Assembly (NCBI GenBank): GCA_011033025.1
Contig: WFMF01000011.1
Location: 1,116,001-1,180,000, forward strand
Direction of reading: 5' to 3'
Origin: Beroe forskalii
Taxonomy: Eukaryota; Ctenophora; Nuda; Beroida; Beroidae
Length of the DNA: 64,000 nucleotides
A program made the translations under genes and the position numbers. A model generated the notes under the pieces. That model did no database searches. It was not told the DNA's origin and saw only the letters and a program-made list of their open reading frames with translations. The first letter of the stretch is position 1. Each line of letters starts with the position of its first letter. Of this stretch, positions 10,357 through 63,455 are shown in pieces.

Positions 10357-11963
10357 TTTGAGACATTTCCTAAGCAGGGAAGGGGTGGTGGTTAGTACAA
10401 AGGGAGACAGAGAGATGGAGAGAGTGGGGGAATAGGCCGTGTGGCGACATCAAGGGATCACCTGAAATCTGAGAAATCATTAACTGCAATGAATAGCCTG
10501 TAGTAAGGAAAGGTTAATTGTCAGGATTATTTAGCCGTTAATAAGATGCTCCAATTGAAACGACAAACATGACTTTTAGTTCAGCACGTTACTCTGCATT
10601 AACGAAGGTATTTTAACGACTCCCATTTAAGGAAACTAAAAGCATCAAATCTCGGGTTTTGGTAAGTGCTTTTAATTGAGATGGTGCTAATGAGTTTCTC
10701 AAATCTTTGCTTAGCTATGACATCACTGCAAAGAAACGATTTAAGCCTTTGATCGACTTCCTCGTCAACTCGAAGTTCTGAAATTCAAGCGATATAATTT
10801 ATAATTTTGGAATATAGTCTCCAGGCACTTAATCTATCCGTCCTAACCCTTAGAAACAAACAAAAAACGCCCTCAGTCAAACTCTTGCATTAAAAAGGTG
10901 AAACAAGAAATATTGCAAGAGAATGTGACGTTAGGTGGGGAGTAATCAGTCAGTTTCACATAACCTCAGCTTGAATATTTAAATTTGCACTCGGGAAAGG
11001 GGGGTTCGTGAGGCCCCAGCTGGTATGACACTTTATGATAAGCTGCAAATTTGAATACATAGTCAGATTATAAGCGGGTTCAAATGTGAGATAGGTATTC
11101 GAGATACCTTCATGACATTTAAGGATTTCAATCATGAGCAGATAGGATCAGTGTCAACCAGCCCCTGCCTTGACCTAACTTGTTCAAGTGACTGCTGAGC
11201 AGCCTATTGGGTAATGCTGAACAACCTAATACTGTAAATCTGTCAGCAAATTTGGTAGTTATTACAAGAGCACCCATGATGATAACTATATACTTAGTTA
11301 AAATTTTGACCTACCAACTGTGCTCCGAGATCCACTCTTCCATGTGTCAGCTGTAACAGAAACACCTAACTTCTTCTCACCTGCAAGATGATGTTAATTC
11401 AGTGATTGAAATGAAATAGTTCTGATCTTTCAGAGTTTTTCTGTTTAATAGGTCTAGAAGCTACTTATAATTTTTCTGAATGAGTAATAAATGATGGACA
11501 GGAATCTGGATAAAAATTTCCTGTTCATATCTAGTATCAATTGGATTAAATACAATTTTCAGGTTGATATGAAAACTTACATTTATCGCATACCATTTCA
11601 AACAGCTCAGAGTAAGGCTGAAGATCTTGTTCAACTGGTGTTGTTAATTGGCATCACTATCACATGGCTCAGGGAAGAGCAAATATGTAGAAGGCAATTG
11701 AAACCTTCCAGTGAACAATTAAATGAATCCAGGGTACAATTATTGTTTGAGTGAAACTTTAATTCAGGATAAGTATAAAAAGATTTTCAGACAGCTTTTT
11801 TAGATAATTTAATTACAAAGGGGGCCAAAAAGACTCTGTACATAGCAGGATTCGTTTCATAATAGATATTTGGCTTAATGAGTAAAAATCTGTTGATTCA
11901 ATAAATAATAAATAAAACGCTGCAGTAAAACACCTTGATCAATAAATAAAAACCACTGAAAAA
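10357..11963. other. Intergenic DNA between PAN3 and RPL14
   Basis: No gene recognised. It should contain the PAN3 5' UTR and promoter and the RPL14 3' UTR. Bases 10370-10450 are purine-rich. Open frames such as 11491-11754 have no recognisable content. Confidence 0.45.
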
Positions 11964-26368: not shown

Positions 26369-29300
26369 TTAGAAGTAGAAGTCCTTGTTGAAGAGTTTAC
26401 CCTCCCAATCGTCAACATTTCCGGCAATGAAGCGCGACCAGAGGGCCTTGTCGTCAGCATTTGACATATCCAGCTTCTTCAGGTCAAAATGCTCCATGTC
26501 GGTGTTCCAGTTTTCATCCTCCAGGAAAATAAGCTCGTAAAATATCGGCGCAGGAAGCATATTGATATAGCGGTGAAGTGTTGGTCTCCCGTGCGCGGCT
26601 CATACTTCGAACTGAAGTTTGCGCGTCTTTCGTGTGCGCGGCGTACGTTTGCAAGGCTTACAGACGTTACTTATATGTCTGTACGCCGCGCAAAATTACC
26701 CCGCGCACAAAAGTACTGCACTCTGAGCGTCTTGTAATTGTATGCGCGTCGCATTTATAAATAACACAGATCTATAAATAACATGTCTGTAAGCCGCGCA
26801 CTCAAAAAACACGCATACTGCAGTCCGAACTGGAGTTTGCGCGTCTTTTGTGCGCGGCGTACAGACATATGAATAACATGTCTGAACGCCTTGCAAACGT
26901 ACGCCTTGCAAACTTCTGTTCGAACTGTCCCCTTAAGCTTGTGTTCTGGGTGGTCAATCTGAGGCGCCCGTAACGTTCGTCGGTCGATCGAATGGAATTG
27001 GTCGATCGATCAACTCCATTTGAACGAATGATGTGTTTTAATGCTCCCTGTTGACTTGAATCGTGTTTAAATGACCAATATTTAGTTGTTTCCCTACTAG
27101 CTTAAAGATTTTCTATTAAAAACACATCAGTCGATCAAATGAAGTTGATCGATCGACCAATTCCATTCGATCGACCGACGAACGTTACATGCACCTAACA
27201 TTGTTTCGGAGTTAGTTTAATGCATTTTTGCAAGGATATAAATCACATTTGCGTGCTATCACTCACCACGAAATTCGAAAAGCACATTTGCGCGCAGCAA
27301 AAAAAAGCAAAACGCGCGCCGTAATAATAAAAGGCCGCACACCAAGGTTATGAGTTATACTTGCAACATTATAGGTGAAGAGCAAATACTGCACAGAGTT
27401 CTACGGTGAATCCAATTTTTCGACCCTATATGGGTGCGACAAGAACAACAACAACAACATTTTCGACGGTATCATATTACATTTATTAATGGTCTTATCA
27501 GCAATATAATTTGCATAAATTCCTTCTTTTTTTCTAATCTTTCAAACGTGATACGTACAGTTTGTGTATGAGTTTCTTTAGTTGTGAAAATAAATCAACA
27601 ATGACTCTTTCGTTCTCCTTGTAAAATCAGCAATATTGGAAGTGATGTTCTAATTGGGGATTCGAAAAAAATATGGGGGGGTATTCACAATTTGAATGTG
27701 TGTTTGAACTGTGAATTGATTATATCATTAATTAAATTTAATCAGAGCATCTGAACATGGTTCTCAGCAATTATCAAATATTTTATTGAGTACTTGGAAA
27801 GCTAGGGGCGTCGAACTCAGTGTTGGAAATGGAAACAAGTTCAGCGGCAGTGCAAAGTTACAAGAAGAAGTACATCTCGAAGGAGCGTAAGAAAAAGGAT
27901 GATCTACTAGATGGATTTTTGACAGACGAAGTATCCCATAAGGATGTAGAAAATTTAGACATTTTGAGGGGTTTCATTAATGATGAGTTTCAGGAGAAAC
28001 CAAGTAGTGATGAACTTGCAAAACCAGCGTTAGATCAGAACGAAGCTGAAGCTAGCGAGGTATCCCCTCAGTTTCTAGAGTGGTTTGAAGGCAAAAGAGA
28101 ACCGAGAACAGAGGAAGAAAAGATTATATACGGGGTAAGTTTCTTCAATGCCCTATTTAAGGAACCCATGGAAAATGAATGTGATTGGAAAGCCAAGATC
28201 GTTCTTCAGCTACAATATATTGCCGTTGGATACAAAGATAATGAGCAACCAATAAATTACACATTTCTTGACGTGGTCAGATTGTATCGCCGCGACTTGG
28301 AAAGTCTCTTCGACCAATATGTTGAGTTATCAAAGAGTTTTGAGACAGGGCTACATTGGATCTCATATACGTTGGATGTCATAAATAAGTCTCACGAACT
28401 TCTCATATTTTGTCTGTACATGTTCGCAAACGTAGCCCTGATTAAGGATAGTTATTTGCAAACCGACGAACAAAAAGAAATGTTAGGAATGCTTGCTTTG
28501 CAAGGATTATCCATTCTCGATATAAACTTTGAGAACCAGCCAATTCCGTTCTGTTATGAAATGACGTTATGGGAAGCGAGGGCGATTTGTACAAAAGACT
28601 GGATGACAGACCTCGTTGGACGTTTCAAAAGATCTGATGTAACTTTAGAATCTGCTATCAATCAGTTTGACAGTAGGCTGATTAGTATTACGAAACATAA
28701 CCTTGGAGAGATCAGTAATTTTCTTGATGCATTTAAGGTTACTGTACTTCGCAGTCTCGCTTTTGTACTAAAAGCCGGATGTACCTATAGTAGGGAAGGA
28801 TTTAGCAAAGACAATATTGGACAGTTTTTGTACATGCATCCACTTCTGAAACCCTTACTCTTTACATTTCTATATAACGCACGAGTTATGCTTTTAATAA
28901 AAGAGACAAGTATAAAATAAAATCCTGGACTGGTAATGGAATGTGTTGTTTTTTCGTTTTTGAATTTGATTGTTATGGGTACTTTTTTGCTGTGCGCTGC
29001 AGCGTTAATTTGCTTTACTATGTTTCGCTTAGAAAGTACCTCTGTGGCCGCAAAATAGCACCCAAGCGCTTCGTAAGTCGTCGCGCCTCGAAAGGTCGAC
29101 AATAACATAATACGGCACAATTATAATCGGCCCCGTATTATTTGATTTGCATATATGAAATCCACAGCCTCTCATTTCATCTCTTTTGCATACGATACCT
29201 AATGGACCTACCCCACAATTAAATCTGACAGTGAGTACGTCAAACCATCTGATTGGTTAAATTGGAATCGTAAACAAAGGAGAGGTATTGGATTGACCAA

Positions 29301-39968: not shown

Positions 39969-41879
39969 TAAGAAATGCGGTTAATTGAAATGCAGCCACG
40001 GCAAATGGGATGACTTTGAGTTTGAGATGAAATAGGGGCTCATAATTCACTCTTTTGCTTCAAGAATGGTCACCTGACTAGCGGGACGTCCTTGAACCGT
40101 GTATTTCTTATCATTCGAAGCTTCTTACAGTGGGCAAAGAACCTGATTGGTTCACTCACTTTGGCTTATTGGTTGATGTGGTCATGGTTCATAGGGTAAG
40201 CTAGGGTCAAAATAAGTAAAATAGTGGAATTTTGGTACCTATCTAGTCGTTAATCGTCTCATAATTCTCACTGATCAATATTTAATTCACATCGAAAATA
40301 ATTTAATTCTTTATAATTTTCCAAATATAGATTTATGACCATTTGTCGAATATTATGAGTTCGCTGAATGACCATGTCTCAAAACATTATTCTAATTTAG
40401 GAGGGCAATCTATGGTGCTGGTAGAACTGGAGACTAATGGAGTCGCTGAAGAGATGTGGCAGTGCTGCAGTAGATGAGTATCTCAACAATCGAGAGGAAT
40501 GGGGTCCTGTGATATCGACCACATTGGACCCACGAGAGTACTGCACAATGTGAGTTGGAATTATTAATTAATTAAAATTGTTAATTGAAAGCAAATTAAA
40601 GTTAGGTCTTTAATCTTCATAATATTGAATGCTCCATAATAGAACGCTGTATATATGCTCATATTTGCCCAAATGCCCACGTACCATTTTTCATCCCTGC
40701 CAGTCCTTAGCCTCGAAATAAGTTTGTGCTCCTCCCCTATAAGTTTAGACCCACATATTATATTCATATTACGAGAAGGCAATGATAAATCGTTCATCTC
40801 AATTGCAATTTAAATATTCTCGACAATCAGATAAATATAATGGCTGACAAATAAAATGAAAATTCATCGCAAATTCTGTTCAAATTTAAAATTCATTCCA
40901 GTTCATCTCTGACACTTTTACCGTCCAATTACTGAATATAATTAGTTATACTGAATATAATTACTGCATTACTAATAGCGAGATAATTAGCTAATTAGCG
41001 AGATAATTAGCTAATTAGTGTCTGGATCCCCGGAATGATAGGAGTGATGATGAGGGGTCATCAGTAATTGCATCTGACATCTGATCAGCAGAAACTGGGA
41101 GGTTTGCACAGCCCATCCGGACACTTCACTGTTCCCGACTTGCATTGTCCCACGTTATCTGAGGGGAGAGATCTGTTAGAATCTGTTCGGATACTGGTGT
41201 TATAACGGTGACATGTCGAACACCTAAGTGCACGGCTTTTTCGTGCGCGGCTCACTGGCTGTTGGTAACAGCTTGAGCCATTGAGACGTGCTGGTGCAGG
41301 ACTACGCCGCGCACGTAGGAATTCGACATATCCCTGTAAGTTTAAGAGTAAGTAATGAGTATGGTCAGTTGAATGTCGTTGACGTGGTTATCATCATCTG
41401 TATATCGTATTCGTAGATGTTGCTATAATTTGATATATATGTTTATTTGGTATGTGTCCCATATAACTCTGGCTGAGTGACGTCACAGACCTAAAGGTAA
41501 ATTTTTCTGTATCCTAAACCTAAATATGGCCCTAACCTTAATCCTGACCCTAAACCTAACAAATCCTGACCCTAATCCTGACCATTAAAGTGCTAGATGC
41601 GCTTAACTATATTTTTCTGACTGATGTCATTATCATAGATAATGAAGAGCCCAGAGTTGTATGGGACACTATAGCCGTATATTTACTCATAATTTCCTCT
41701 CTATGATATGGCATACAAGTTACATCATCACTAGTGCAGCAAAACCAGTAAGGGATCAATATAAAGATACTAACTATCATTCTACTTACCAGCTAACTAC
41801 CACTATTGCAGGAACCACATTATCTTGAAAGCCCATTGCCCAACAGCTAAAGTCGACCACAATATGTGACGACATACGA
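39969..41879. other. Gene-poor interval with dispersed repeats
   Basis: Contains CCAAT-type foldback words (CTGATTGGTTCACT near 40144, GCTTATTGGTTGATG near 40166), an inverted CG-rich pair at about 41214-41331 (GTCGAACACCTAAGTGC against GCGCACGTAGGAATTCGAC), and a reverse-complement copy of the GTGACGTCACTCAGCCAG repeat near 41470-41540. Apart from one weak exon candidate I see no gene. Confidence 0.5.
40425..40549 (+). CDS. Possible saposin-like exon (weak)
   Basis: Between a possible acceptor (GGTAG) and the donor CAAT/GTGAGT, one frame is open and reads RLMESLKRCGSAAVDEYL, then WGPVISTTLDPREYCTM. The spacing of Cys, the VDEYL helix and the LDPREYC end resemble the second half of a saposin B domain. 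No partner exon was found, the acceptor is poor, and a stop lies just upstream, so this may be a chance or fossil exon. Confidence 0.22.
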
Positions 41880-43600
41880 GCTCAACAACTTAGTACCTCC
41901 TATGAACCCAACATCCCAATAGCTCCATGTGAGCCCAACAACCCAATAGCTCCAGGTGAGCCCAACAACCCAATAGCTCCATGCGAGCCCAACAACCCAA
42001 TAGCTCCAGGTGAGCCCAACAACCCAATAGCTCCAGGTGAGCCCAACAACCCAATAGCTCCAGGTGAGCCCAACAACCCAATTGCTCCATGTGAGCCCAA
42101 CAACCCAATAGCTCCAGGTGAGCCCAACAACCCAATAGCTCCTTTTGAGCCCAACAACCCAATAGCTCCAGGTGAGCCGAACAACCCAATAGCTCCATGC
42201 TAGCCCAACAACCCAATAGCTCCAGGTGAGCCCAACAACCCAATAGCTCCATGCGAGCCCAACAACCCAATAGCTCCAGGTAGAGCCCAACAACCCAATA
42301 GCTCCAGGTGAGCCCAACAACCCAATAGCTCCAGGTGAGCCCAACAACCCAATAGCTCCATGTGAGCCCAACAACCCAATAGCTCCAGGTGAGCCCAACA
42401 ACCCAATAGCTTCTTGTGAGCCCAACAACCCAATAGCTCCAGGTGAGCCCAACAACCCAATAGCTCCATGCGAGCACAACAACCCAATAGCTCCAGGTGA
42501 GCCCAACAACCCAATAGCTCCAGGTGAGCCCAACAACCCAATAGCTCCAGGTGAGCCCAACAACCCAATAGATCCATGTGAGCCCAACAACCCAATAGCT
42601 CCAGGTGGGCCCAACAACCCAATAGCTCCTTGTGAGCCCAACAACCCAATAGCTCCAGGTGAGCCCAACAACCCAATAGCTCCTTGTAGGCCCAACAACC
42701 CAATAGCTCCAGGTGAGCCCAACAACCCAATAGCTCCTTGTGAGCCCAACAACCCAATTGCTCCATGTGAGCCCAACAAACCAATAGCTCCTTGTGAGTC
42801 CAACAACCCAATAGCTCCATGTGAGCCCAACAACCCAGTAGCTCCATGTGAGCTGAACAACTAATAGCTCCAGGTGAGCCCAACAACCCAATAGATCCAT
42901 GTGAGCCCAACAACCCAATAGCTCCAGGTGGGCCCAACAACCCAATAGCTCCTTGTGAGCCCAACAACTAACAGCTCCAGGTTAGCCCAACAACCCAATA
43001 GCTCCTTGTGAGCCCAACAACCCAATAGCCCAGGTGAGCCCAACAACCCAATAGCTCCTTGTGAGCCCAACAACCCAATTGCTCCATGTGAGCCCAACAA
43101 ACCAATAGCTCCTTGTGAGTCCAACAACCCAATAGCTCCATGTGAGCCCAACAACCCAGTAGCTCCATGTGAGCTGAACAACCCAATAGCTCCATGTGAG
43201 CACAACAACTCAATAGCTCCAGGTGAGCCCAACAACCCAATAGCTCCATGCGAGCCCAACAACCCAATAGCTCCAGGTGAGCCTAACAACCCAACAGCTC
43301 CAGGGAGCCCAACCCAATAGCTCATTGTGAGCCCAACAACCCAATAGCTCCATGTGAGCCCTTCGACCCAATAGCTCATTGTGAGCCCACATTCCATAAC
43401 TCAATAGCTCCAAGTAAGCTCAACAACCAATTAGCTCCAGGTGAGCCCAACAACGCAAAAGCTCTATGTTACCCAACAACTCAACTGCTCGATCTAACCC
43501 CAAAAACTACATTTGAGCAAAATTACCCAAGAGCCCCATCTGAGCTCAACTACCCAAGAGCTTCGTGTGATTCACAAGTACCCTACACCCCTCAAACTCA
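41880..43600. repeat. 27-bp minisatellite (AACAACCCAATAGCTCCA units)
   Basis: About 60 units of 27 bases with core GAGCCCAACAACCCAATAGC followed by TCCAGGT, TCCATGT or TCCTTGT. Variant order is partly repeated: 42580-42850 and 42890-43180 share a run of variants, so higher-order duplication has occurred. Several units carry one-base gains (for example at 42284), which break any single plus-strand frame. Many units contain CCAG/GTGAGC, a 5' splice-site consensus. Degenerate units continue to about 43880. Confidence 0.92.
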
Positions 43601-46668: not shown

Positions 46669-47191
46669 TAATTGTTCGATTACACCTGCCCTCTCATCTC
46701 TAGGGCAGCAGCTGAGAGTACCTAGTGTGACACCATCAACTCCCCATTATATTCCCTGATAATGACGTCACTCTCAGCCGCCTACCCGGGGTTCTGTGTA
46801 TCTGAGAGACACATGTGGTACTATGTGGATATGCTAGTACTTCTCCTCTGTGAGTTACTATTTGCTGCGCCCCCTCTAGATATTATACCTCTAGAGGTGT
46901 AATAATTACACTGTATGTTCTGCCGAAGAGTACTGACAAAGAGTACTGTCAAATCTGTCTCTTTGATCTGTTGAGCTCTACTGGGGTGTGTCAAACACTG
47001 GTTTCTGTGTTCTATTGGTTTTTCTTTATGTACCTTTTTTTATTCATGATTTTTTTGAACTTGTGCTTGTAGTCGTTTTTGCATAGTGTTGACTTTGTAT
47101 GGATAAACTGTCAGTGAAAGCTGTCAGTGTGAAATGCTAGCTATATCATATAGACTTGAATGAAACTAAGGGCTTATAAACTCTAAGGACA

Positions 47192-47257
47192 CTTACCATG
47201 AGCGTATATCTGTTAGAAAAGAATAAAACCTTTGTACGTACCATGAGCGTATATCTG
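47192..47257 (-). repeat. Duplicated exon-3 tail with its own splice sites, left arm
   Basis: The 13 bases ATATACGCTCATG that end lectin exon 3 occur twice, 45 bases apart. On the minus strand the second copy is preceded by TTCTTTTCTAACAG and followed by GTAAGT, a complete acceptor-microexon-donor cassette. The 32-base space between the copies starts GTACGT and ends AACAG. Confidence 0.85.
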
Positions 47258-49196
47258 TACTTCACAGAGCGCTAGAGAGAGGAGAGGAGGTCTGGGGTGG
47301 TAGAAATCCACTGTAACGAACTTGCCCACCAAGTTGTTACACAGGCGGGTTATTTGGTAGTCGGTGTGAATGGAGGTGTCAATGTCTCCTCCACACTGCG
47401 GGTCCTTGTAGTCACCCCTGAAAAGTAGGAGTAGTATACTAAGATAGTCACCCCTGAGGGTAAAGTAGTCAAGTTAAATTATACAATGTAGTCACTAGTC
47501 ACCCCTGTGGGAAAAATAGTCATTAGATAGTCAATTATATTCATCAGAGTAGTCACCCCTGGAGACATAGTGTTAGAAAGTCAGGTTAGACTGAACAATG
47601 TAGTCACCTCTGTGGCGGAAAGTAGTCATCAGATAGTCAATTGGATAAAACAGTATAGTCACCCCTGGGGGTAAAATAGTCATTGTGTTTGATAGTCATT
47701 GTCAGGCAGTAACATTAAACAATGTAGTCACTAGTCACCCCTGAAAATGGGTTAAAAGGTAGTCATTGCGTTTGAAAGTCAGGTTGAATTAAATGCTTGA
47801 ATGATATTTTCACCCCTGAACAGTGGTTAAAGTAGTCATATAATTGTATAGCCATGTAGTTTAATTAACATTGTAGTAAATACCCGTGACTGATGGTTAA
47901 GCGCTGTGATTTGAGATTTTAGCGAACTGTCGCAATGGCAGGAGAGTACAATACCATTACAAGTTCTATTTGACATCATGTCGTCACTGCAATGTCACGG
48001 ATATAGCACTGTAGCTCATGTACCCTTGTTTTAGTGTACATAGGTTACAGCCCCCGCCCTTCTTTCACTAGTATCTTAGTATATGACTTGCATATATAAC
48101 CCACCTACCATAGCTTTACCTACGTATATAACCCATCTGACCTACTGTCACTAAACCCACCTACCATAGCTTCACTAGCGTATATAACCCATCTGACCTA
48201 CTGTCACTAAACCCACCTGCCCTTGGGCCACTAGCATATTATATAGCCCATCTGACCTATTGTCACTAAACCCACCTACCATAGCTTCACTAGCGTATAT
48301 AACCCACCTGATCCAGTGTCACTATATAGACCCACCCGACGTAGTTTAACTAGCGTATATAACCCACCTGCCATAATATATAGTGTCTCTAAACCCACCG
48401 CCCCATTTTCACTAAACCCACCTGCCCTTGTGCCACTAGTATATAACCCACTTTCTGTCACTAAACCCACCTGCCCTTGTGCCACTAGTATATAACCCAC
48501 TTTCTGTCACTAAACCCACCTGCTCTTGTTTCTCTAGCGTATATAACCCACCCGATCCACAAAATCCACCGCCCCATTTTCACTAAATCCACCTTGTGCC
48601 ACCAGTATATAACCCACTTTCTGTCAGTAAACCCACCTGCCCTTGTGCCACCAGTATATAACCCACTCTGTCACTTAACCCACCTCCTCTCGTTTCACTA
48701 GTATATAACCCACTTTCTGTCACTAAACCCACCTGCTACCCTAGTGTCAGTACTCACTAAACCGACCTGCTGCCCACGTGGAGGGTAGCCCCATCCAGAT
48801 CTGAGGTGTTGTTGTCTGAGGTGAGACTCACTACTATCTTGTGGATGGTTCGGGTGTCTCCCAGCTCTACTCGCCACCAGCTGATGTAGTCAGGTCTGAA
48901 GTAGGAGACTTGTAGATTAAACTTTAAAGTAAGATAGCAGGCTAACTTTAGAGGTAACAGTTATTATAATTATGGTTCTATAGCACGAAGTTGTGCTGAT
49001 TGGTTGAAAGCCCCCGTATAAGGGGCTCGCCTTATTTGGGGAATTCTCGACTGATTCCCACATCAAACTCACTTCGTTTTACTACAGAAGCCATGGGTGT
49101 AGTTACCATCTGTCTTTCCATCGATAGCTTTCTCCGCCTTGCCAATGTGGTCTGCTGTAGTGGATTGTAACGCACTACCCGTCAAGGCTACGTCAT
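47242..49196 (-). CDS. FTP/fucolectin-like lectin domain gene, left copy (three exons)
   Basis: Exons 49073-49196, 48767-48895 and 47242-47417 with GT-AG borders and matching phases encode one F-type lectin (FTP) domain of 143 codons. Exon 1: DVALTGSALQSTTADHIGKA, then KAIDGKTDGNYTHGFCSK. Exon 2: PDYISWWRVELGDTRTIHKI, then LDGATLHVGS. Exon 3: DPQCGGDIDTSIHTDYQITR, then LALCEVQIYAHG. The order (ALQSTT, AIDG, WWRVELG, I..IVV, LDGATLHVG, LCEVQIYA) is that of fucolectin and tachylectin-4 domains, which bind fucose-type glycans in secreted or membrane proteins. Signal peptide and other domains are not visible, so the gene is partial. A possible decayed earlier FTP exon lies at about 49370-49440 (DELVARAVQGSSTE). 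Both introns' splice junctions are embedded in minisatellites. Confidence 0.85.
47411..47880 (-). repeat. Minisatellite seeded at the exon-3 acceptor, left arm
   Basis: Degenerate units of about 50-65 bases repeat TAGTCACCCCTG, which on the minus strand is CAG/GGGTGACTA, the exact acceptor and first exon bases of lectin exon 3. At least eight units are visible. Each therefore offers a 3' splice-site-like AG. Confidence 0.8.
48040..48772 (-). repeat. Minisatellite seeded at the exon-2 donor, left arm
   Basis: Units of about 45-57 bases contain AAACCCACCTGC or AACCCACCTACC; on the minus strand this is GCAG/GTGGGTTT or GGTAG/GTGGGTTT, the donor of lectin exon 2 (true site at 48765-48766, GTCGGT in this copy). 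The array runs downstream from the exon into the intron. The intervening unit text is CTAGTATATAACCCAC and similar. Confidence 0.8.
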
Positions 49197-50394
49197 CTGA
49201 AATTATAACACGGTTTATTACTTCGCCGGTTTATTACTTCGCCGGTTTATTAACCCGGTTTATCAACCCGGTTTATTACTTCGTTTATTACTTCGGTAAT
49301 AAGTAACTTATCACACTCCGCTGTTCGTCGTGCGATAAGGACCGGTAACGCACTGTCGCACTGTTCCTCGAACGATAACTTTTCATTAGTACTCTCCGTG
49401 GAACTCCCTTGCACGGCTCGTGCTACTAATTCATCGGAAATCATAACAGGGTTTATGTTTTAATTTCAATCTCAAGGGACATCCAGTTTCGATGCTTTTG
49501 GTCTGACCTCACAGTGGTTTAATGTAATGAAACTGTAAGTATATAATTCTATGGCACTGTAAAAGCAGTGTGCTGACATTGAAACTCTGGTTCCATGACG
49601 TCAGCTTCGCAAGACTGAGCTAGCAGATATTATTATTGTGAAATAGTGAGGTCAATGCATATGGATCCGCCCTGTGATGTTGCTGTTAATGTGGTAATGT
49701 TGTGCAGACTACCGTGCCTGGTTTAGCGCCTGTTTGCTTGAATGTTTCCGGTTTTGAATGTGTAAGCAGCTATCCAAGACAAGACTTAGACTTATAAATT
49801 TCCAATTATTTATGCAATTATTTAATGAAAAGAAATATAATTCCTGTATGACATATCCCGTGTCAAGCTTTCCATGAACTAAGTATATTGTAATGCTAAT
49901 ACTATTCCATTGGTAGTTACAACACAGCCCAACCTTCATGGTGAGTGAAACACATTGACACTTAGACATCATCAATTCACACCATTGTGAACCATGATAA
50001 TTACGACATTCTCCATGGTCTATTGTCTTAGTTCCCGGCGTTTAATTGTGTAATATATGGTTAATATATCTCTTGTCCGTGTTTTGTGCCATCTTCTGAA
50101 CCCATGTGTGAGTATAAAGGAGGATGATGCTGAACTCATCAGGCTTTTGTTAACTCTACAATCCCTACTCTGTTACTATCCCTACTCTGTTACTTACCAC
50201 CGCATCACTCTGTTAGACTGTTACCACCGCATTACTCTGGTATTGCCCTATTATCGCGCTTGTTATACGTCCCATTACTTCATTATAAGGACCTCCTGAC
50301 AACTGCCACTTTCATTAGACTATTCCATTGTGACTCTTCGTTCTATTCCCATAATCCCAGGTCATTTTAATATGTTGCTATGGGTTTGAGTGGT

Positions 50395-53300
50395 TTACTG
50401 GATTTTCCATGCACCAATATTTCCTTCTTTCGAAGTAATGTCGTTCATAAAGTTTCTCAAAATCTTGTCGCTTAAGTTTCTTAAAATCCCGTTTCTAAAG
50501 TTCCTAAAAACGCGGTGTGTTTTGAACTCATCGTCGTCCTTCTCGGCGTACAAGTCGTTGCTATCCCTCTCTCCCCTGTCTTGGTAGGTGAGTTCTGGGT
50601 ACACTGGAGCTTGGGTTATCATACAGCCGTCCTGCGAACTGTCCCGAGATACTCTGATAAACCCGTTCTCACCCCAATCCTCTCCCCAGCTGTGGGATGA
50701 GGGCGTTATACATTTTAGACATCGTATACATCATACATCTTTCACATTTATACATCTTGATATACATTTATATATCTTATGCATGCTATACATTTATACA
50801 TCACATACATTTATACACTTTATACATCTATGCATAAATTGTATAGTTATACTTCTTATACATATCATACATTTTATTCATCTTATACATTAAAACATTG
50901 CATACGCTATACATTTTACAGCTATTCATTTATACATCTATACACTATACATTTATACATCTAGGGTTTCCATCTAGATATTATCTAGATAAGATTATCT
51001 AGATAATTTGCAAAAAATCATTGTCTATTTATCTAGATAATTTGTACTAGATATCTAGATAAATTTCATATCCCCTTTTTGCCAAGAAATTTGTAGCTAA
51101 AATCGCCCTTTTTTCAGAAATTCGTCAATAATTGTAGGGATTTCAAGACCAAAATTTCCAATCTGTTCATTTTATACGTTTCGGGAGATTTTAAGGTATC
51201 AGGACAATTTATGGCTATGCATTAGTGGACGGACAACCTATTCTATACTTCTATATGAACATAGTTCAATTTTTAGGCCCCCAGAATCATGGGCAGGCTG
51301 TTTGGCTTCGGGCACAATCTGTTTCATTGATAATTAAACCTCTGTTAAACTGGAAATGAATAACTACAGAATTAGAAGGTGTTGTTTAAAGTATCTTATC
51401 ACATAACCTTACAAATCGTCATTTGCCATTTTAACGAAAGTTTAATACCTACTCTTAACACTCGCTATTTGCTTCCAATTTTGTTAAACTAATGACACCC
51501 TTTGGACAAAAAGTAAGCTTGTAAATATGTACGAAAGTCCCAGCTATGGTAAAGTGATTGCTTATTTGAAACTATAAAAAACCTACAAATGGTCAAAATT
51601 AAAGTTATCCATTGTAGAATCATAACTGCTAGATAGTTATGATGATTTAATACGAGGAATTTAATTTTTTTTTTTATGCATGTTATACAATTTTAGCTAT
51701 TCCAAAAAACAGGCCATCACTAGTGAGCATTTTTCCACATCTTATTTTTTTCGATGAATTATGCAAGTATTCATTGCAACTAATTGGTAGATAATGTTGT
51801 TAAGTTTGTCATGGGATTGGGAGAACTGATGTTTTATTACTGATTTCAACTCAATCAAAATGAAGAATGAATAATCTGAACTCCATTCAGAATCCAAATA
51901 TCACCATAAACTTTTGCGGTCAATATCATTCATTCTAATAACTGACAATGCAACAGAAGTTGTGCATTTCAACATTGAAAATTTTGTCAAAAAATGTGGA
52001 TAATTTTCGGATTCAAAAATTATCTAGTTTATCTAGATAATCTAGATAATGGCAAAAAAATTATCTATTTGTCTAGATAAAAGATTTCAAGTAGATAATG
52101 GAAACCCTATATACATCTTATACATCTGTAAATTTGTGCATCCATGCGTTGTATAGATCCCCAGATCCTTACACCCGTTCAGTCAGTGCATTTCTTATCA
52201 TGTGATATAAATGATATCTAAGAGTGGTAAATCCATATCCTCTGCACCTGCCTTACCTACCAATTAATAGCCACTGACAATATCTCGTCATTAAGCCGTA
52301 TTATATCCGGATTGTTTGTTTGTTGAGAATTCGAGAGCTGTTTGTCAAACATCTGTCTGGTGACTATCATTTACATTTAATCGATCCCATCTACTGTACT
52401 TTGAAAGTCAGTGAAGCTTGAAATCATTTTTTCAGTAATTGCAGGTTGTTTTGGAATCCTTTGAGCTAACTCAAATCAAGTCAGATGGTGACATTGCAAT
52501 CGGTTTTGCTTTCGTGAGCTAAGCTTCAATTTTGTTTGTCTGTTTGTTGATATCCGGTTCCAGTTCCGTCGTGTCATTTTAAATTAACCCTTGTTAAATA
52601 TCAAATTTAAACAGTTCAACTACCCTACAGTATTGTGGCATGGCTGTCGATAATTGGTATTCTATACAGTCAACAATCACAAACAGTCACAAGCATATTG
52701 GCAATGCAATTGCTTATTTTGACAGTCGCTTATTTCGACAGTCTTTATTTCGACAATGCTTATTTCGACAAGATGCTTATTTCGGCAGTACCTATTTCGG
52801 CAGTGTTTACTTCGACAGCCCATCCTATTCGCCTACTGGCGAATTAGCGACCTGATAATGTGTCACGCCATTACAGAATTGCTTCGCAATGTACGTCGTC
52901 TTAAATACATAGGTTAATTGCGATTATAAATCATTTAACGCGGTCAATCTTCCAATTAGTCCTTCCTTAAGCAGATTTTTACTTTATTAACGTCTTCCGA
53001 AACAAGTTATTTGATTTGTCACTCCTTTGTATACTACTGTTTCAACACGCCTTTAAACCATTGATCTCCGGGGGTTTCAAAAAGTGCAACGTTTTAGAAG
53101 ATAAAACACATGGCCCGGCACCCACCGTGGTATTTTGGGATTTACGACATAATAATTACAAATAATCATGTAATATTCCCTTATTCTGGAATTCAAATTT
53201 AGGATTTATCACATCAATAACAATGGATACAATAGCACGGCACCTACGACTTTCAACGCCTTGATTAACGTTTTCCAACCTGTTTTTGACCGTCCTCTTT

Positions 53301-56300
53301 CCTATAATGAGAGTCCTCTAACCTATAAGTGTTCAAGAGAGTCCTCTAACTTGTTCTTGAGAGTCCAGTAAGTCTGGGAGAGTCCTCTTACCTGTTCTTT
53401 AGAGTCCAGTAAGTCTGTGAGAGTTCTCTTACCTGTTCTTGAGAGTCCAGTAAGTCTGGGAGAGTCCTCTTACCTGTTCTTGAGAGTCCAGTAAGTCTGG
53501 GGGAGTCCTCTAACCTGTTCTTGAGAGTCCAGTAAGTCTGGGAGAGTCCTCTTACCTGTTCTTTAGAGTCCAGTAAGTCTGTGAGAGTTCTCTTACCTGT
53601 TCTTAAGAGTCCAGTAAGTCTGTGAGAGTCCTCTTACCTGTTCTTGAGAGTCCAGTAAGTCTGGGGGAGTCCTCTAACCTGTTCTTGAGCGTCCAGTAAG
53701 TCTGTGGGAGTTACCTGTTCTTGAGAGTCCAGTAAGTCTGTGAGGGTCCTCTAACCTGTTCTTTAGAGTCCAGTAAGTCTTTGAGAGTCCTCTTACCTGT
53801 TCTTGAGAGTCCAGTAAGTCTGTGAGAGTTCTCTTACCTGTTCTTGAGAGTCCAGTAAGTCTGTGAGAATCCTCTTACCTGTTCTTTAGAGTCCAGTAAG
53901 TCTGTGGGAGTTACCTGTTCTTGAGAGTCCAGTAAGTCTGTGAGGGTCCTCTAACCTGTTCTTGAGAGTCCAGTAAGTCTGGGGGAGTCTTCTTACCTGT
54001 TCTTGAGAGTCCAGTAAGTCTGTGAGAGTTCTCTAACCTGTTCTTTAGAGTCCAGTAAGTCTGGGGGAGTTCCCTTACCTGTTCTTGAGCGTCCAGTAAG
54101 TCTGTGGGAGTTACCTGTTCTTGAGAGTCCAGTAAGTCTGTGAGGGTCCTCTAACCTGTTCTTTAGAGTCCAGTAAGTCTTTGAGAGTCCTCTTACCTGT
54201 TCTTGAGAGTCCAGTAAGTCTGTGAGAGTTCTCTTACCTGTTCTTGAGAGTCCAGTAAGTCTGTGAGAATCCTCTTACCTGTTCTTTAGAGTCCAGTAAG
54301 TCTGTGGGAGTTACCTGTTCTTGAGAGTCCAGTAAGTCTGAGGGTCCTCTAACCTGTTCTTGAGAGTCCAGTAAGTCTGGGGAGTCTTCTTACCTGTTCT
54401 TGAGAGTCCAGTAAGTCTGTGAGAGTTCTCTAACCTGTTCTTTAGAGTCCAGTAAGTCTGGGGGAGTTCCCTTACCTGTTCTTGAGAGTCCAGTAAGTCT
54501 GAGAGAGTCCTCTAACCTATTCTTGAAAGTCCAGTAAGTCTGTGGGAGTTACCTGTTCTTGAGAGTCCAGTAAGTCTGGGCGAGTCCTCTAACCTGTTCT
54601 TGAGAGTCCAGTAAGTCTGAGAGAGTCCTCTTACTTGTTCTTGAGAGTCCAGTAAGTCTGTGAGAGTCCTCTTACCTGTTCTTGAGAGTCCAGTAAGTCT
54701 GGGGGAGTCCTCGTACCTGTTCTTGAGAGTCCAGTAAGTCTGGGGGAGTCCTCTAACCTGTTCTTGAGAGTCCAGTAAGTCTGTGGGAGTCCTCTTACCT
54801 GTTCTTGAGAGTCCAGTACGTCTGTGAGAGTCCTCTAACCTGTTCTTTAGAGTCCAGTAAGTCTGTGGGAGTTACCTGTTCTTGAGAGTCCAGTACGTCT
54901 GAGAGAGTCCTCTTACCTGTTCTTGAGAGTCCAGTAAGTCTGTGAGAGTCCTCTAACCTGTTCTTGAGAGTCCAGTACGTCTGTGAGAGTCCTCTTACCT
55001 GTTCTTGAGAGTCCAGTAAGTCTGAGAGAGTCTTCTTACCTGTTCTTGAGAGTCCAGTAAGTCTGAGAGAGTCCTCTTACCTGTTCTTGAGAGTCCAGTA
55101 AGTCTGAGAGAGTCCTCTTACCTGTTCTTGAGAGTCCAGTAAGTCTGAGAGAGTCCTCTTACCTGTTCTTGAGAGTCCAGTAAGTCTGTGGGAGTTACCT
55201 GTTCTTGAGAGTCCAGTAAGTCTGAGAGAGTCCTCTTACCTGTTCTTGAGAGTCCAGTAAGTCTGGGGGAGTCCTACCTGTTCTTGAGAGTCCAGTAAGT
55301 CTGGGAGAGTCTTCTTACCTGTTCTTGAGAGTCCAGTAAGTCTGGGGGAGTCCTCTTACCTGTTCTTGAGAGTCCAGTAAGTCTGAGGGAGTTACCTGTT
55401 CTTGAGAGTCCAGTAAGTCTGGGAGAGTCCTCTTACCTGTTATTGAGAGTCCAGTAAGTCTGAGGGAGTCCTCTTACCTGTTCTTGAGAGTCCAGTAAGT
55501 CTGAGAGAGTTCTCTAACCTGTTCTTGAGAGTCCAGTAAGTCTGAGGGAGTCCTCTTACCTGTTCTTGAGAGTCCAGTAAGTCTGGGAGAGTCTTCTTAC
55601 CTGTTCTTGAGAGTCCAGTAAGTCTGAGAGAGTCCTCTAATCTGTTCTTGAGAGTCCAGTAAGTCTGAGGGAGTTCCCTAACCTGTTCTTTAGAGTCCAG
55701 TAAGTCTGTGGGAGTTACCTGTTCTTGAGAGTCCAGTAAGTCTGTGGGAGTTACCTGTTCTTGAGAGTCCAGTAAGTCTGTGAGAGTCCTCTTACCTGTT
55801 CTTGAGAGTCCAGTAAGTCTGTGAGAATCCTCTTACCTGTTCTTTAGAGTCCAGTAAGTCTGAGAGAGTCCTCTTACCTGTTCTTGAGAGTCCAGTAAGT
55901 CTGGGAGAGTCCTCTAACCTGTTCTTGAGTGTCCAGTAAGTCTGTGGGAGTCCTCTTACCTGTTCTTGAGATTCCAGTAAGTCTGAGAGAGTCCTCTAAC
56001 CTGTTCTTGAGAGTCCAGTAAGTCTGTGGGAGTTACCTGTTCTTGAGAGTCCAGTAAGTCTGTGGGAGTTACCTGTTCTTGAGAGTCCAGTAAGTCTGAA
56101 AGAGTCCTCTTACCTGTTCTTGAGAGTCCAGTAAGTCTGTGAGAATCCTCTTACCTGTTCTTTAGAGTCCAGTAAGTCTGTGAGAGTTACCTGTTCTTGA
56201 GAGTCCAGTAAGTCTGAGAGAGTCCTCTTACCTGTTCTTGAGAGTCCAGTAAGTCTGGGGGAGTTACCTAACCTGTTCTTGAGAGTCCAGTAAGTCTGGG

Positions 56301-59300
56301 AGAGTCTTCTAACCTGTTTTTGAGAGTCCAGTAAGTCTGAGAGAGTCCTCTTACCTGTTCTTGAGAGTCCAGTAAGTCTGGGGGAGTTACCTAACCTGTT
56401 CTTGAGAGTCCAGTAAGTCTGGGAGAGTCTTCTAACCTGTTCTTGAGAGTCCAGTAAGTCTGGGGGAGTCCTCTTACCTGTTCTTGAGAGTCCAGTAAGT
56501 CTGGGGGAGTCCTCTTACCTGTTCTTGAGCGTCCAGTAAGTCCAGGGGTAGGTCTCTTACCTGTTCTTGAGAGTCCAGTAAGTCTGTGAGAGTCCTCTTA
56601 CCTGTTCTTGAGAGTCCAGTAAGTCTGAGAGAGTCCTCTAATCTGTTCTTGAGAGTCCAGTAAGTCTGAGGGAGTTCCCTAACCTGTTCTTTAGAGTCCA
56701 GTAAGTCTGTGGGAGTTACCTGTTCTTGAGAGTCCAGTAAGTCTGTGGGAGTTACCTGTTCTTGAGAGTCCAGTAAGTCTGGGGGAGTCCTCTTACCTGT
56801 TCTTGAGAGTCCAGTAAGTCTGGGAGTACCCCGTCATCACCATGGCGTGGTCTATGTCAGGGTTGGAAGAGGAGGGTGGACATCCCGCGAACACCCCACT
56901 CCTGAGGAAAAGGAAGATACTGAGTTCCTCATGTCTAACTTAACTCCTACCATTAGGGTCAAGGGATATTTGCTTACACATTAGTCCCTTGGCCATTGAC
57001 CAATCAGTGCACAATTCAGCTAAACTTGCAGTTTTTACTTTAATAAATGAACTACTCTTCTCATGATTTAGCTCAGGGCATATTACCTGTAAAAGAACAT
57101 GGTGGAGCCGTGAACTGCCACCGCTAGCAGTCGCTGTGAGAGTGCCCTCTCCACTGAAGCGCCGTCAGATGCCACCAACTTGAACCCTTCAAACTTCACG
57201 TTCTTCATTCCGTTAGGTGGCAACTTGTCCCGGTCACATGGCCTGTCTGGAATGACGAATGAATTTCCACAACTAAACAGGAATTAAAAGGGATTTAACA
57301 TTGATAATTAAATAATTAATTGGTCATAAATTATAGGTGCAATTCCCGACCCTTGAAATAGAATACTCACATGGTTCTATAGAACACACTCAATACATGA
57401 ATTGACCAGACGATAATAAGCGAAATTAAAAAGTCTTTGTTTTGACCCTCACCCTTGGCAACGTAAGGGTAGTCGTTGTACGTTGCTAGCCGTTTGTAGT
57501 ACTTGATGTAGTAGAAGGGTTTGTAGTGGTATCCTCCGTTACAGGAGTCATACGAGTCTCCATAGTAACAGTCTAACAGCTCCTGCGGAGTAGGAATTAG
57601 GCTGATCACGTGACAGGAGTGTATAACGCGTGATACTGCATGACATGGTAACGCGTGATATTTGGTTTTTGGCAACGCTACGCGTGATGTTCGGTAACGC
57701 GTGGCATTCGGTAGCGCGTGGTATTCGGTAGCGCGTGATATTTGGGAGCGCGTGATATGGTAACGCGTGATGTTTGTCACGCGGCGCGTGACATTGTATA
57801 ATTGGGATCAATGTTACGAGTTGTGATGTTTGATTTTGTTGCGATACTGCGAAAAATTCTCGTGATGTTATTGTACCAACGAACGCAAAATAATCCAATT
57901 TAAGTTTTATTATCACGTGATCAAAGGTGGCGGATTTTCACAAATATTGTTCTATCATCATCAACTCGACTCATCGTTAGCTGCAAAAACCGCTTACCTG
58001 CTCAGAAAACGATTTCAGGTATCCTGTGACTTGCTTATACGCTCCTTCGAATGCACCGACCTGAAATTAAAACATCAATATTCTTCTAATTTTGATGTAG
58101 CTATGGAGGTGACTCAGTTCTGATCTACAAATATTCACAATACTATTGATCTGATGATCCGCTGTCTGGTATGAAATCGGATCTCAGATAATATTGGAGT
58201 GACAAAGGCAGATCGTTGTGAATTTCAAGCAGTCTCCCGGTAGAAATATAGACAAACATTACTGAAATAATATTACAATGTTTCGCAATAATCTATACAA
58301 TTATACTCTGTGTGAAGGCACTGAGTTTCTCTTTATATCCTACTCTCCCTGCTGTCCGTGATCGAATTGCAGTGAGTCCTGAAGAGCTGTGTGTCCTTTG
58401 TTTGCCGATGAAAGAGCCAATTAAACCGGCATGGCTCGGTCAGCACTTCCTCACGGCGGATATAAAGCTTAGTTTTATTAGTTTGCGAACTTCACGGCTT
58501 CTTTCTAGGATCTTTGTGTCGTACACACTGCACCGAGAGAGGTGGTGTTTGGTTTTGTCTATTCACTGCTTTAAACCCGTCATAATATTCCGTCTACACT
58601 TCCAACTATTTCTGTCTGTTCTTTGGAAAGGTCCGGGTGAATTTATCCCGTATCCGTTGACTGAGTAGGTATACTGTAGAACGATCTCCGTTTGGGTTGC
58701 CCGAATCTCGATACTCTCAAGAGTAGCTTATGTTGGTTTGTTGTTCAACCGCTCACGGTGTGGGAACAGTGTTGTCACTTTCCAGTCTGTGTTGGCCTAA
58801 CTTATTCAGCAGGTATAGCGATCTGGCATAGGACTAAACGGCCAGTGACCATGCAATGGGTATGGTCTGGCAATACTAGATTAAACCCGTGTAATGGCAT
58901 GTGTTCAATAACAGTAATTCCAGCCTCCCTGACCTTATTATGGGTTGCCGCTGATTCTCTATTCTCAACTTACCGCTGAGAAGGTCCAACAGGAACCACA
59001 GGCGTGCTGGTTCTTCACGGGGGTCACAATCCCTGACGTTCTGTGGTCCACCTGACAGGAGTTATATTGATTGAGTTAAAACTTGAGTTATAACTCGAGT
59101 TAACTTGGTTGAGTTAAAACTTGAGTTAGAACTTTAATTAACTTGGTTGAGTTAAAACTTCAGTTACGGCGTTACGCTGCTCTAAGTTAGATTTGAGCAG
59201 AGTGTTGCTTATTCTTTAATCTCCTGTACTAAGGGATCGTTCACATATTACGTAATCACCAAGGGGGAGGGGGTTTCCGAATGATTACGTTACATGTTAT

Positions 59301-61757: not shown

Positions 61758-63302
61758 ATGACGTAGCCTTGACGGGTAGTGCGTTACAATCCACTACAGA
61801 AGACCACATTGGCAAGGCAGAGAAAGCTATCGATGGAAAGACTGATGGTAACTACACTCATGGTTTCTGTAGTAAAACAAAGTGAGTTCAATATATGGGA
61901 ATCAGTCAAGAATTCCCCAAATCAGGCGAGCCCCTTATACGGGGGCTTTCAACCAATCAGGACAACTTCGTGCTATAGTTCGTTAACTGTTCACTTTCAC
62001 GAGCCTGGTATTTACAAGCCTGGCATTTCAGACCGGACTACATTTCTAGCCACAATAAGTGTCTAAACCAAAATTTAAGCTGCGAAATGCGGTCATCAGT
62101 CACAACTTTTAGTAAACTATGACTACCAACTGTTACAACTCTTAAAAGCCTCCTACTTCAGACCTGACTACATCAGCTGGTGGCGAGTAGAGCTGGGGGA
62201 CACCCGAACCATCCACAAGATAGTAGTGAGTCTCACCTCAGACAACAACACCTCAGATCTGGATGGGGCTACCCTCCACGTGGGCAGCAGGTGGGTTTAC
62301 TGACAGAAAGTGGGTTATATACGCTAGTTAAACTACGTCAGGTGGGTTTAGTGACACTGGATCAGATGGGTTATAAACGCTAGTGAAGCTATGGTAGGTG
62401 GGTTTAGTGACAATAGGTCAGATGGGTTATAAACGCTAGTGAAGCTATGGTAGGTGGGTTTAGTGACAGTAGGTCAGATGGGCTATATACGCTTGTGAAG
62501 CTATGGTAGGTGGCTTTAGTGACAGTAGGTCAGATGGGTTATATACGTAGGTAAAGCTATGGTAGGTGGGCTATATATGCAAGGCATATACTAAGATGCT
62601 AGTGAAAGAAGGGCGGGGGCTGTAACCTATGTACACTAAAAACAAGGGTACATGAGCTATATCCGTGACATTGCAGTGACGACGTGATGTCAAATAGAAC
62701 TTGTAATGGTATTGTACTCTCCTGCCATTGCGACAATTCGATAAAATCTCAAATCACAGCGCTTAACCATCGGTCACGGGTATTTACTACAATGTTAATT
62801 AAACTACATGGCTATACAATTACATGACAACTTTAACCACTGTTCAGGGGTGACTATATTATTCTAGCATTTATTAATTCAACCTGACTATCAAACGAAA
62901 TGACTACTTTAACCACTTTTCAGGGCTGACAGTGACTATCAAACACTATGACCACTTCACCCCTGGTTCAGGGTTGTTTAATTTAACCTGACTATCAAAC
63001 GCGATGACTACCTTAACCCACTGTTTAGGGTGGACTACATTGTTTAATTTAATTGCCTATCTAACGACTACTTTACCCTCAGGGGTGACTACATTACATT
63101 ATTTGACTATCTACTACTCCTACCAGGGGTGACTACAAGGATCCGCAGTGTGGAGGAGACATTGACACCTCCATTCACACCGACTACCAGATAACCCGCC
63201 TGTGTAACAACTTGGTGGGGAAGTTCGTTACGGTGGACTTCTACCACCCTCGACCTCCTCTCCTCTCTCTAGCGCTCTGTGAAGTACAGATATACGCTCA
63301 TG
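61758..63302 (+). CDS. FTP/fucolectin-like lectin domain gene, right copy (three exons)
   Basis: Mirror copy of the left lectin gene, transcribed away from the protease. Exons 61758-61881, 62162-62290 and 63127-63302 have the same lengths and phases as on the left. Substitutions are few (STTEDH here, STTADH on the left). Domain landmarks: ALQSTT, KAIDGK, ISWWRVELGDTRTIHKIVV, LDGATLHVGS, QCGGDID, LSLALCEVQIYAHG. After exon 3 the exon tail is duplicated twice more with splice sites. A candidate fourth exon begins at 63456 (ARDMNGSNHFCTLVFRLKYG, then GTAAAT), unproven. N-terminal part of the protein is not visible. Confidence 0.85.
62282..62600 (+). repeat. 56-bp minisatellite seeded at the exon-2 donor, right arm
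   Basis: Starting at the donor GCAGCAG/GTGGGTTT, the intron repeats about five units of 50-56 bases ending TATGGTAG/GTGGGTTTAGTGAC. Every unit keeps AG/GTGGGT. Units here are more uniform than in the left arm. Confidence 0.85.
62820..63140 (+). repeat. Minisatellite seeded at the exon-3 acceptor, right arm
   Basis: About six units end in CAGGGGTGACTAC or a close variant (near 62845, 62917, 62968, 63025, 63079), identical to the true acceptor and first exon bases at 63123-63135. The rest of the unit is AACCTGACTATCAAACG and ATGACTACTTTAACCC-type sequence. Confidence 0.82.
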
Positions 63303-63455
63303 GTAAGTTTATTTCTAAGGTTTTACTTCTATTCCAACAGATATACGCTCAGGGTAAGTCTTATTTATTTGCAAATGTTTTACTTCTATTCCAACAGATA
63401 TACGCTCATGGTGAGGTTATTTATTTGCAAATGTTTTACTTAGATATTCCAACAG
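63290..63455 (+). repeat. Exon-3 tail duplicated as acceptor-microexon-donor cassettes, right arm
   Basis: ATATACGCTCATG (last 13 bases of exon 3) occurs at 63290, 63341 (one change) and 63398. The second and third copies are each preceded by CTTCTATTCCAACAG and followed by GTAAGT or GTGAGG. A fourth acceptor, ATATTCCAACAG, ends at 63455. Confidence 0.88.

What the first reader, a model, noticed from the sequence alone, without database searches (positions are those of the whole stretch)
53290..56824. A coding exon-intron junction amplified into about 85 tandem copies, each with a splice donor and the catalytic-Asn codons
Seen directly: on the minus strand the 41-bp unit equals the last 25 bases of the cysteine protease exon at 56797-56901 plus the first 16 bases of its intron. 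The array starts at the exon border. Nearly all units keep AACAG/GTAAGAG or a close variant, and the coding part TYWTLKN including the active-site Asn. Known: splicing needs one donor; tandem duplication of AGGT-containing DNA is a proposed way of creating introns. Inference: the array gives the pre-mRNA dozens of competing donors, and may act as decoy sites, as a length-variable regulator of protease output, or simply be neutral. The retained donor consensus across units is either recent homogenisation or selection.
Basis: partly seen in the sequence, partly recalled or inferred. Interest (0 to 1): 0.92.

Follow-up and report, generated by a model that had tools for sequence, protein, structure and literature searches.

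The report
Intron array copied from exon end
In a comb jelly gene for a protein-cutting enzyme, the end of one coding segment, together with the signal that starts the following non-coding stretch, has been copied about 87 times in a row inside that stretch; such arrays are known from lancelets, and the pattern of small changes hints that these copies descend from working gene ends.

Summary
TRF finds a 41-bp array of 87 copies at 53337-56826. On the minus strand each unit is the last 25-26 nt of a papain-family protease exon (56797-56901) plus the first 15-16 nt of its intron. The next exon starts at 50689 and joins in frame as [12 protein letters not shown]. The genome is a ctenophore's, judged by PAN3. 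A second contig, C1131, carries 143 units.

It matches the 'mirages' of amphioxus (PMC3087553, PMC3902484, passages read). Selection on decoy donors is not supported: intron donor positions +3..+6 deviate in 23% of cells, codon positions 1/2 in 0.4%. What stands out is a coding imprint: 7 of 13 possible synonymous but 6 of 59 nonsynonymous changes occur in the window array (p=0.0012; C1131 alone p=0.29). I infer that units descend from junctions once in use, then spread by block duplication.

Only donor 1 gives the enzyme; the 86 others put TAA one codon after the exon. Exons that probably belong to the same gene carry smaller splice-site arrays. Eight of eight paralogues read lack this intron. 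No RNA was available.

The parts
53337..56826 (-). 41-bp junction minisatellite, 87 units (exon end + donor + intron start); unit 1 is the real exon end
   Evidence: TRF; unit list; columns
53280..53336 (-). about two decayed unit remnants at the far (intron) edge of the array
   Evidence: read directly; excluded from counts
56797..56901 (-). exon E5 of the protease: SGVFAGC...[18 protein letters not shown], with the His and Asn of the active site; ends in phase 2 at AACAG|GTAAGAG
50690..56796 (-). array-bearing intron, 6107 bp
50569..50689 (-). exon E6, beginning [17 protein letters not shown]..., acceptor CATCCCACAG; its 3' end was not determined
58974..59051 (-). exon with the catalytic Cys ([26 protein letters not shown])
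57998..58060 (-). exon E2 [21 protein letters not shown]
57453..57582 (-). exon E3 ELLDCYYG...YPYVAK
   Evidence: one search prints the start one base off
57087..57246 (-). exon E4 [16 protein letters not shown]...FFYR
49073..49196 (-). exon E7, first part of an F5/8 (discoidin-like) domain; membership in the same gene inferred from paralogues
   Evidence: the plus-strand copy matches F5/8 in Pfam
48767..48895 (-). exon E8, F5/8 domain; donor GCAG|GTCGGTTTA
48098..48770 (-). donor-side array at E8: 12 matches to GCAG|GTGGGTTTA with up to 2 mismatches, real junction included; only GCAG of the exon is shared
47409..47745 (-). acceptor-side array before E9: 7 matches to CCCAG|GGGTGACTA with up to 3 mismatches, the last being the real acceptor
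47242..47417 (-). exon E9, F5/8 domain
47191..47259 (-). E9 donor junction ATATACGCTCATG|GT present twice (GTACGT, GTAAGT)
41088..41150 (-). possible last exon, motif GQCKSGTVKCPDGLCKPPSFC then stop; weak match to the C-terminus of two single-exon paralogues (E 0.015 and 0.13)
61758..63416 (+). inverted second copy of the F5/8 exons with its own repeated splice sites (donor GTGGGTTTA x5, acceptor x3, ATATACGCTCATG junction x3)

Best explanation
It is an exon-intron-junction minisatellite of the kind called a 'mirage' in amphioxus, here in a ctenophore papain-family protease gene. Shown: the unit spans the real junction, the reading frame is intact across it, only donor 1 can give the enzyme, and the exon half of the units carries few and disproportionately synonymous changes while the intron half varies freely. 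Inferred: it began as a slip between a short repeat in the exon (TACTCCCAG) and a similar one just inside the intron (GACTCCCCCAG). The units descend from junctions that were in use as exon ends, so that protein-changing and donor-breaking changes had been removed before each was copied into the intron; block duplications then scattered them. The spliceosome uses the exon-proximal donor 1, as reported for amphioxus mirages, and the other donors are tolerated because any use of them ends in an immediate stop and loss of that transcript. I expect at most a small cost or tuning of output.
For: Unit and junction identity; in-frame exon joining; Peptidase_C1 match and active-site motifs. Coding imprint: window array, synonymous alleles 7 of 13 possible, nonsynonymous 6 of 59 (two-sided p=0.0012); in the two other frames 1 of 19 vs 9 of 44 and 0 of 13 vs 9 of 50. 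Intron half 14 of 39 vs nonsynonymous 6 of 59, p=0.004; in C1131 22 of 39 vs 13 of 59, p=0.0011. The three commonest exon-half variants over both arrays (-9A 35 units, -12G 8, -6A 7) are synonymous. Five-unit block 64-68 = 74-78; longest run in 200 order shuffles 3. All 86 downstream donors give TAA one codon after the exon. Mirages in amphioxus Adh3, TnC, globins and PGBD5, said not to disturb regular splicing (PMC3087553 and PMC3902484, passages read). Other repeated splice sites nearby.
Against: The synonymous bias is not significant in C1131 alone (5 of 13 vs 13 of 59, p=0.29; with changes in at least two units 4 of 13 vs 5 of 59, p=0.0496), pooled p=0.0099. Split by type of mutation the pooled bias is not significant on its own (transitions p=0.12, transversions p=0.067, one-sided). 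Of the pooled variants in three or more units, 3 of 8 are nonsynonymous. Alleles are few and the arrays share history. No gradient of likeness to the exon unit (rho -0.07, p=0.50), which speaks against simple growth from the exon edge. No transcript and no close homologue was found (46 matches at E 1e-30 or better, none above 41% identity), so splicing is unproved. A stop after GTAA is a general property of phase-2 introns.
Confidence: 0.68

Rival explanations
1. Pure neutral minisatellite: a recent expansion of a few founder units, the low exon-half variation being founder chance without any coding history.
For: C1131 alone shows no significant synonymous bias, nor do transitions or transversions taken apart; block duplication and shared variant frequencies in the two arrays.
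Against: Window array: synonymous vs nonsynonymous p=0.0012, true frame only; nonsynonymous sites are poorer in variants than intron sites in both arrays.
Confidence: 0.2
2. The array is a length-variable splicing decoy or poison device: a share of transcripts uses donors 2-87, gains an in-frame stop and is degraded, so array length tunes protease output.
For: 44 of 87 donors are at least as strong as the real one by U1 pairing; every alternative donor is unproductive; a six-unit stretch folds less than all 200 shuffles, z=+3.2, so donors may be accessible (repeats bias that control); the two contigs differ in length (87 and 143 units).
Against: Donor intron positions vary more than exon positions; the 23 GTTAG and 15 GTAACT donors pair more weakly with U1. 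No expression data.
Confidence: 0.12
3. Recursive or dual-site splicing: AG|GT of each unit acts as both acceptor and donor, and the intron is removed stepwise, each step regenerating the same junction so that the protein is unchanged.
For: AG|GT is intact in nearly all units; a tandem array of dual-specific sites exists in human UBC (PMC10809524, abstract read).
Against: Pyrimidine content before AACAG|GT is 0.41 on average, below all five real acceptors measured (0.64-0.93, the E3 value taken one base off).
Confidence: 0.04

Closest known systems
Amphioxus 'mirages' (Adh3, TnC, globins BflGb6/BflGb9, PGBD5)
   Same: [quoted passage not shown] many units keep AG/GT; both 5' and 3' boundaries can be affected; length variation (PMC3087553, PMC3902484, passages read).
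   Different: Ctenophore, not cephalochordate; 87 and 143 units where BflGb6 has 6 and 3; a coding imprint in the units; several junctions of probably one gene affected; paralogues without this intron.
Intron gain by tandem genomic duplication of AGGT-bearing exon segments (review PMC3443670, passages read)
   Same: Tandem duplication of DNA containing AG|GT; a gene whose paralogues lack the intron.
   Different: The acceptor of this intron is not a unit copy, so the array enlarges an intron and cannot be shown to have made it.
Tandem dual-specific splice sites of polyubiquitin UBC (PMC10809524, abstract read)
   Same: Tandem array of AG|GT motifs.
   Different: In UBC the sites delimit ubiquitin monomers and variable numbers are spliced in; here units are 41 or 36 bp, retained unit 1 brings a stop, and use as acceptor looks improbable.

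Membership tests
Mirage (exon-intron boundary minisatellite) | Tandem units span a real exon-intron boundary | tested here: met
   (boundary inferred from the reading frame and family match, not from RNA)
Mirage (exon-intron boundary minisatellite) | Units carry AG/GT splice signals | tested here: met
   GT kept in 85 of 87 window units; in C1131 3 of 282 GT cells deviate
Mirage (exon-intron boundary minisatellite) | Regular splicing is not disturbed (RT-PCR) | not testable with these tools
   no RNA; only the frame analysis
Mirage (exon-intron boundary minisatellite) | Length instability between alleles or cells | tested here: inconclusive
   C1131 holds 143 units up to its end, but allele and other locus cannot be told apart
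Intron gain by tandem duplication | Intron bounded at both ends by copies of the duplicated exon segment | tested here: not met
   acceptor side reads CATCCCACAG|CTGGGG, by eye not a unit copy
Intron gain by tandem duplication | Intron absent from relatives | tested here: inconclusive
   8 of 8 paralogues read have an open frame across the NSWG site, but intron loss by retroposition is not excluded
Dual-specific splice-site array | AG|GT used as both donor and acceptor | not testable with these tools
   only pyrimidine content measured, which is low
Papain family protease (PF00112) | Domain match and Cys, His, Asn active site | tested here: met
   E 3.7e-49; alignment to mexicain; residue roles recalled from the family

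The most novel reading that the evidence does not exclude
The array is a written record of the exon end: units pass through use as the real junction before being copied into the intron, so that an intron carries the synonymous history of its own exon. In what is probably one gene the same process works at four splice junctions at once, a live case of introns growing, and perhaps being born, from duplicated exon borders in a ctenophore.
Probability: 0.25. Interest if true: 0.75.

Novelty: new member of a known kind. Interest (0 to 1): 0.52.

Why it matters
In the papers listed by my searches mirages under that name appear only for lancelets, and none of the listed papers describes one in a ctenophore; the library lacks most subscription papers. 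A ctenophore case makes them a general animal phenomenon or a repeated one. An array of 87 near-identical donors beside an intact reading frame is a natural test of how the spliceosome picks one donor among many. The coding imprint, if it holds, gives a way to read how such arrays are fed from the exon and whether they can make new introns.

Tried and rejected
Amphioxus as the source: dropped after the PAN3 search, whose best named hit was the ctenophore Bolinopsis microptera at 68% (amphioxus PAN3 in that list is at 36%). An 18S pattern from memory found nothing, and an Rfam search failed. C1131 as a plain allele of the window locus: not supported, because its 12.3-kb flank has no match in the window and no run of three or more identical consecutive units is shared; but several common variants have nearly equal frequencies in both (+3T 0.29/0.30, -9A 0.15/0.16; others differ, e.g. 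-27A 0.44/0.28), and apart from the gene's own exons no listed match to the protease exceeds 54% identity (a capped list), so it stays open. Genome-wide donor enrichment in tandem repeats: not found (64 arrays of period 20 or more in 164 kb, window included; 14 with donor score 7 or more against 11.6, sd 2.8, in random windows, reached in 83 of 300; score 8 or more 3 against 1.9, reached in 92 of 300). Growth only from the exon edge: no gradient. Earthworm metallothionein intron repeats (PMC12783039, passages): intronic minisatellites, not described there as spanning a junction.

Rows dropped: 2 of 143 C1131 units (lengths 60 and 50) from column counts; the decayed remnants at the array's far edge. 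In the early protein queries I joined one stretch wrongly before the E4 acceptor was fixed; it does not touch the E5-E6 junction. One search used an E6 start two bases off; its result for donors 2-87 does not depend on E6, and donor 1 was redone. One search measured the E3 acceptor one base off, and one search gives the E3 start one base off.
Full report
What was checked. The array is present as described. TRF reports 53337-56826, period 41, 87.1 copies. An anchor split gives 87 units, and no unit length points to a missed copy. The first unit is the end of a coding exon on the minus strand, 56901-56797. Its last codons are CAG ACT TAC TGG ACT CTC AAG AAC AG, then GTAAGAGGACTCCCC. The next exon starts at 50689; the join reads [19 protein letters not shown] in frame, intron 6107 bp. 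The product matches Peptidase_C1 (E 3.7e-49) and solved papain-like proteases over 218 residues.

Where it is. The window is G000:C110:1116001-1180000 of a 216-Mb assembly. The PAN3 frame at 8593-10449 has its best named match in the ctenophore Bolinopsis microptera (68%), with two unnamed records at 82% and 79%. I call the genome a ctenophore's and do not name the species.

The host gene. Paralogue frames map onto successive exons of the minus strand: Cys exon 59051-58974, E2 58060-57998, E3 57582-57453, E4 57246-57087, E5 56901-56797, E6 from 50689. In two paralogues (L015 and L019) the same open frame goes on into an F5/8-like domain; others (L017, L018, L023) go on into different cysteine-rich sequence. 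F5/8 exons lie downstream on the minus strand of the window (E7-E9: 49196-49073, 48895-48767, 47417-47242), and a weak match to the C-terminus of L019 and L021 lies at 41150-41088 (E 0.015 and 0.13). I infer that protease and F5/8 exons are one gene, but no E6 donor was fixed and the E6 frame can also run to a stop at 50398, so a separate F5/8 gene is not excluded. Eight of eight paralogues read have an open frame across the NSWG site; in L017 and L018 the frame begins after the Cys region, so only part of their structure is known to be intronless.

Conservation. In the window array the share of cells that differ from consensus is 0.4% at codon positions 1/2, 3.4% at codon position 3, 1.1% at -2,-1 and at +1,+2, 23% at +3..+6 and 18% at +7..+13; C1131 gives 0.8, 3.7, 0.7, 1.1, 16.5 and 13.5%. 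Gaps count here; much of +4..+8 is the five bases missing from the 36-bp units. The donor's intron bases are the variable part and the coding half is the quiet part. Counting each kind of change once, the window array has 7 of 13 possible synonymous and 6 of 59 nonsynonymous changes (p=0.0012); reading the same bases in the two other frames gives no excess. C1131 has 5 of 13 and 13 of 59 (p=0.29), pooled 9 of 13 and 17 of 59 (p=0.0099). Transitions and transversions taken apart give p=0.12 and 0.067, one-sided. The intron half is richer in changes than the nonsynonymous sites in both arrays (p=0.004 and 0.0011), and AG|GT, with 3 of 12 pooled, is like nonsynonymous sites (p=1.0) and below intron sites (p=0.016). 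The simplest reading is that the units descend from junctions that were once real exon ends under protein and splice-site selection. Counts are small and the two arrays share ancestry, so this is an indication, not a proof.

Turnover. The 87 units have 55 distinct sequences; units 64-68 equal 74-78 in order, while 200 shuffles never exceed a run of 3. Neighbours are not more alike than random pairs, and likeness to the exon unit does not fall along the array. I infer growth by blocks, not by steady addition at one edge.

Splicing. By pairing to the recalled U1 end, 44 of 87 donors are at least as strong as the real one. Use of any of the 86 later donors leaves AGG TAA after the exon, so translation stops one codon on. 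This follows from a phase-2 intron beginning GTAA and is not a special feature. One or two 23-nt microexons break the frame, three restore it, but the acceptor-like sites are weak (mean 0.50 pyrimidine against 0.64-0.93). I expect donor 1 to be used, as reported for amphioxus mirages (PMC3087553, PMC3902484; passages read). No RNA could be examined, and no close protein was found (46 matches at E 1e-30 or better, none above 41% identity).

More of the same. The E8 donor is followed by a donor-bearing array (12 matches to GCAG|GTGGGTTTA with up to 2 mismatches, the real one included, with only GCAG of the exon repeated), E9 is preceded by 7 matches to its acceptor CCCAG|GGGTGACTA (up to 3 mismatches, the real one included), and the E9 donor junction is doubled. 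The inverted F5/8 copy on the plus strand has 5, 3 and 3. Of 17 splice junctions placed, the number lying close to a tandem array on the intron side is 1 at distance 0 (random mean 0.30, reached in 536 of 2000), 3 within 20 nt (0.78; 83 of 2000), 5 within 60 (1.54; 22 of 2000) and 7 within 120 (2.67; 23 of 2000). In 164 kb of this genome, however, tandem repeats in general are not enriched in donors.

C1131. This 18.2-kb contig holds 143 units running to its end, next to a 1.1-kb repeat found elsewhere with other flanks. Its remaining flank does not match the window. Whether it is another allele, a moved copy or a partial duplicate is open.

Verdict. A real exon-junction minisatellite, a new member of the amphioxus 'mirage' kind in a ctenophore, with a coding imprint that deserves a population test.

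Noticed in passing
50961-52109: A repeat of about 1.15 kb inside the same intron, with dozens of copies on other contigs, mostly at 78-90% identity (40 of 169 candidates scored).
   Followed up: partly
C1131:11204-12338 (L009, L024): A 1.1-kb repeat abutting the second array, with 91-96% copies on C692, C290 and C802 that end at the same base.
   Followed up: partly
41878-43484: A 27-bp array of about 60 copies between E9 and the possible last exon, open in several frames.
   Followed up: no
   Followed up: partly
61758-63416: Inverted second copy of the F5/8 exons; both copies match the joined query at 88-98%, and their repeated splice sites differ in number.
   Followed up: partly
59059-59166 and 49211-49252: Small tandem arrays 8 and 15 nt upstream of the Cys-exon and E7 acceptors.
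   Followed up: no
17446-18474 and 27790-28917: Two related open frames of 343 and 376 codons; the second was scanned and has no Pfam match.
   Followed up: no
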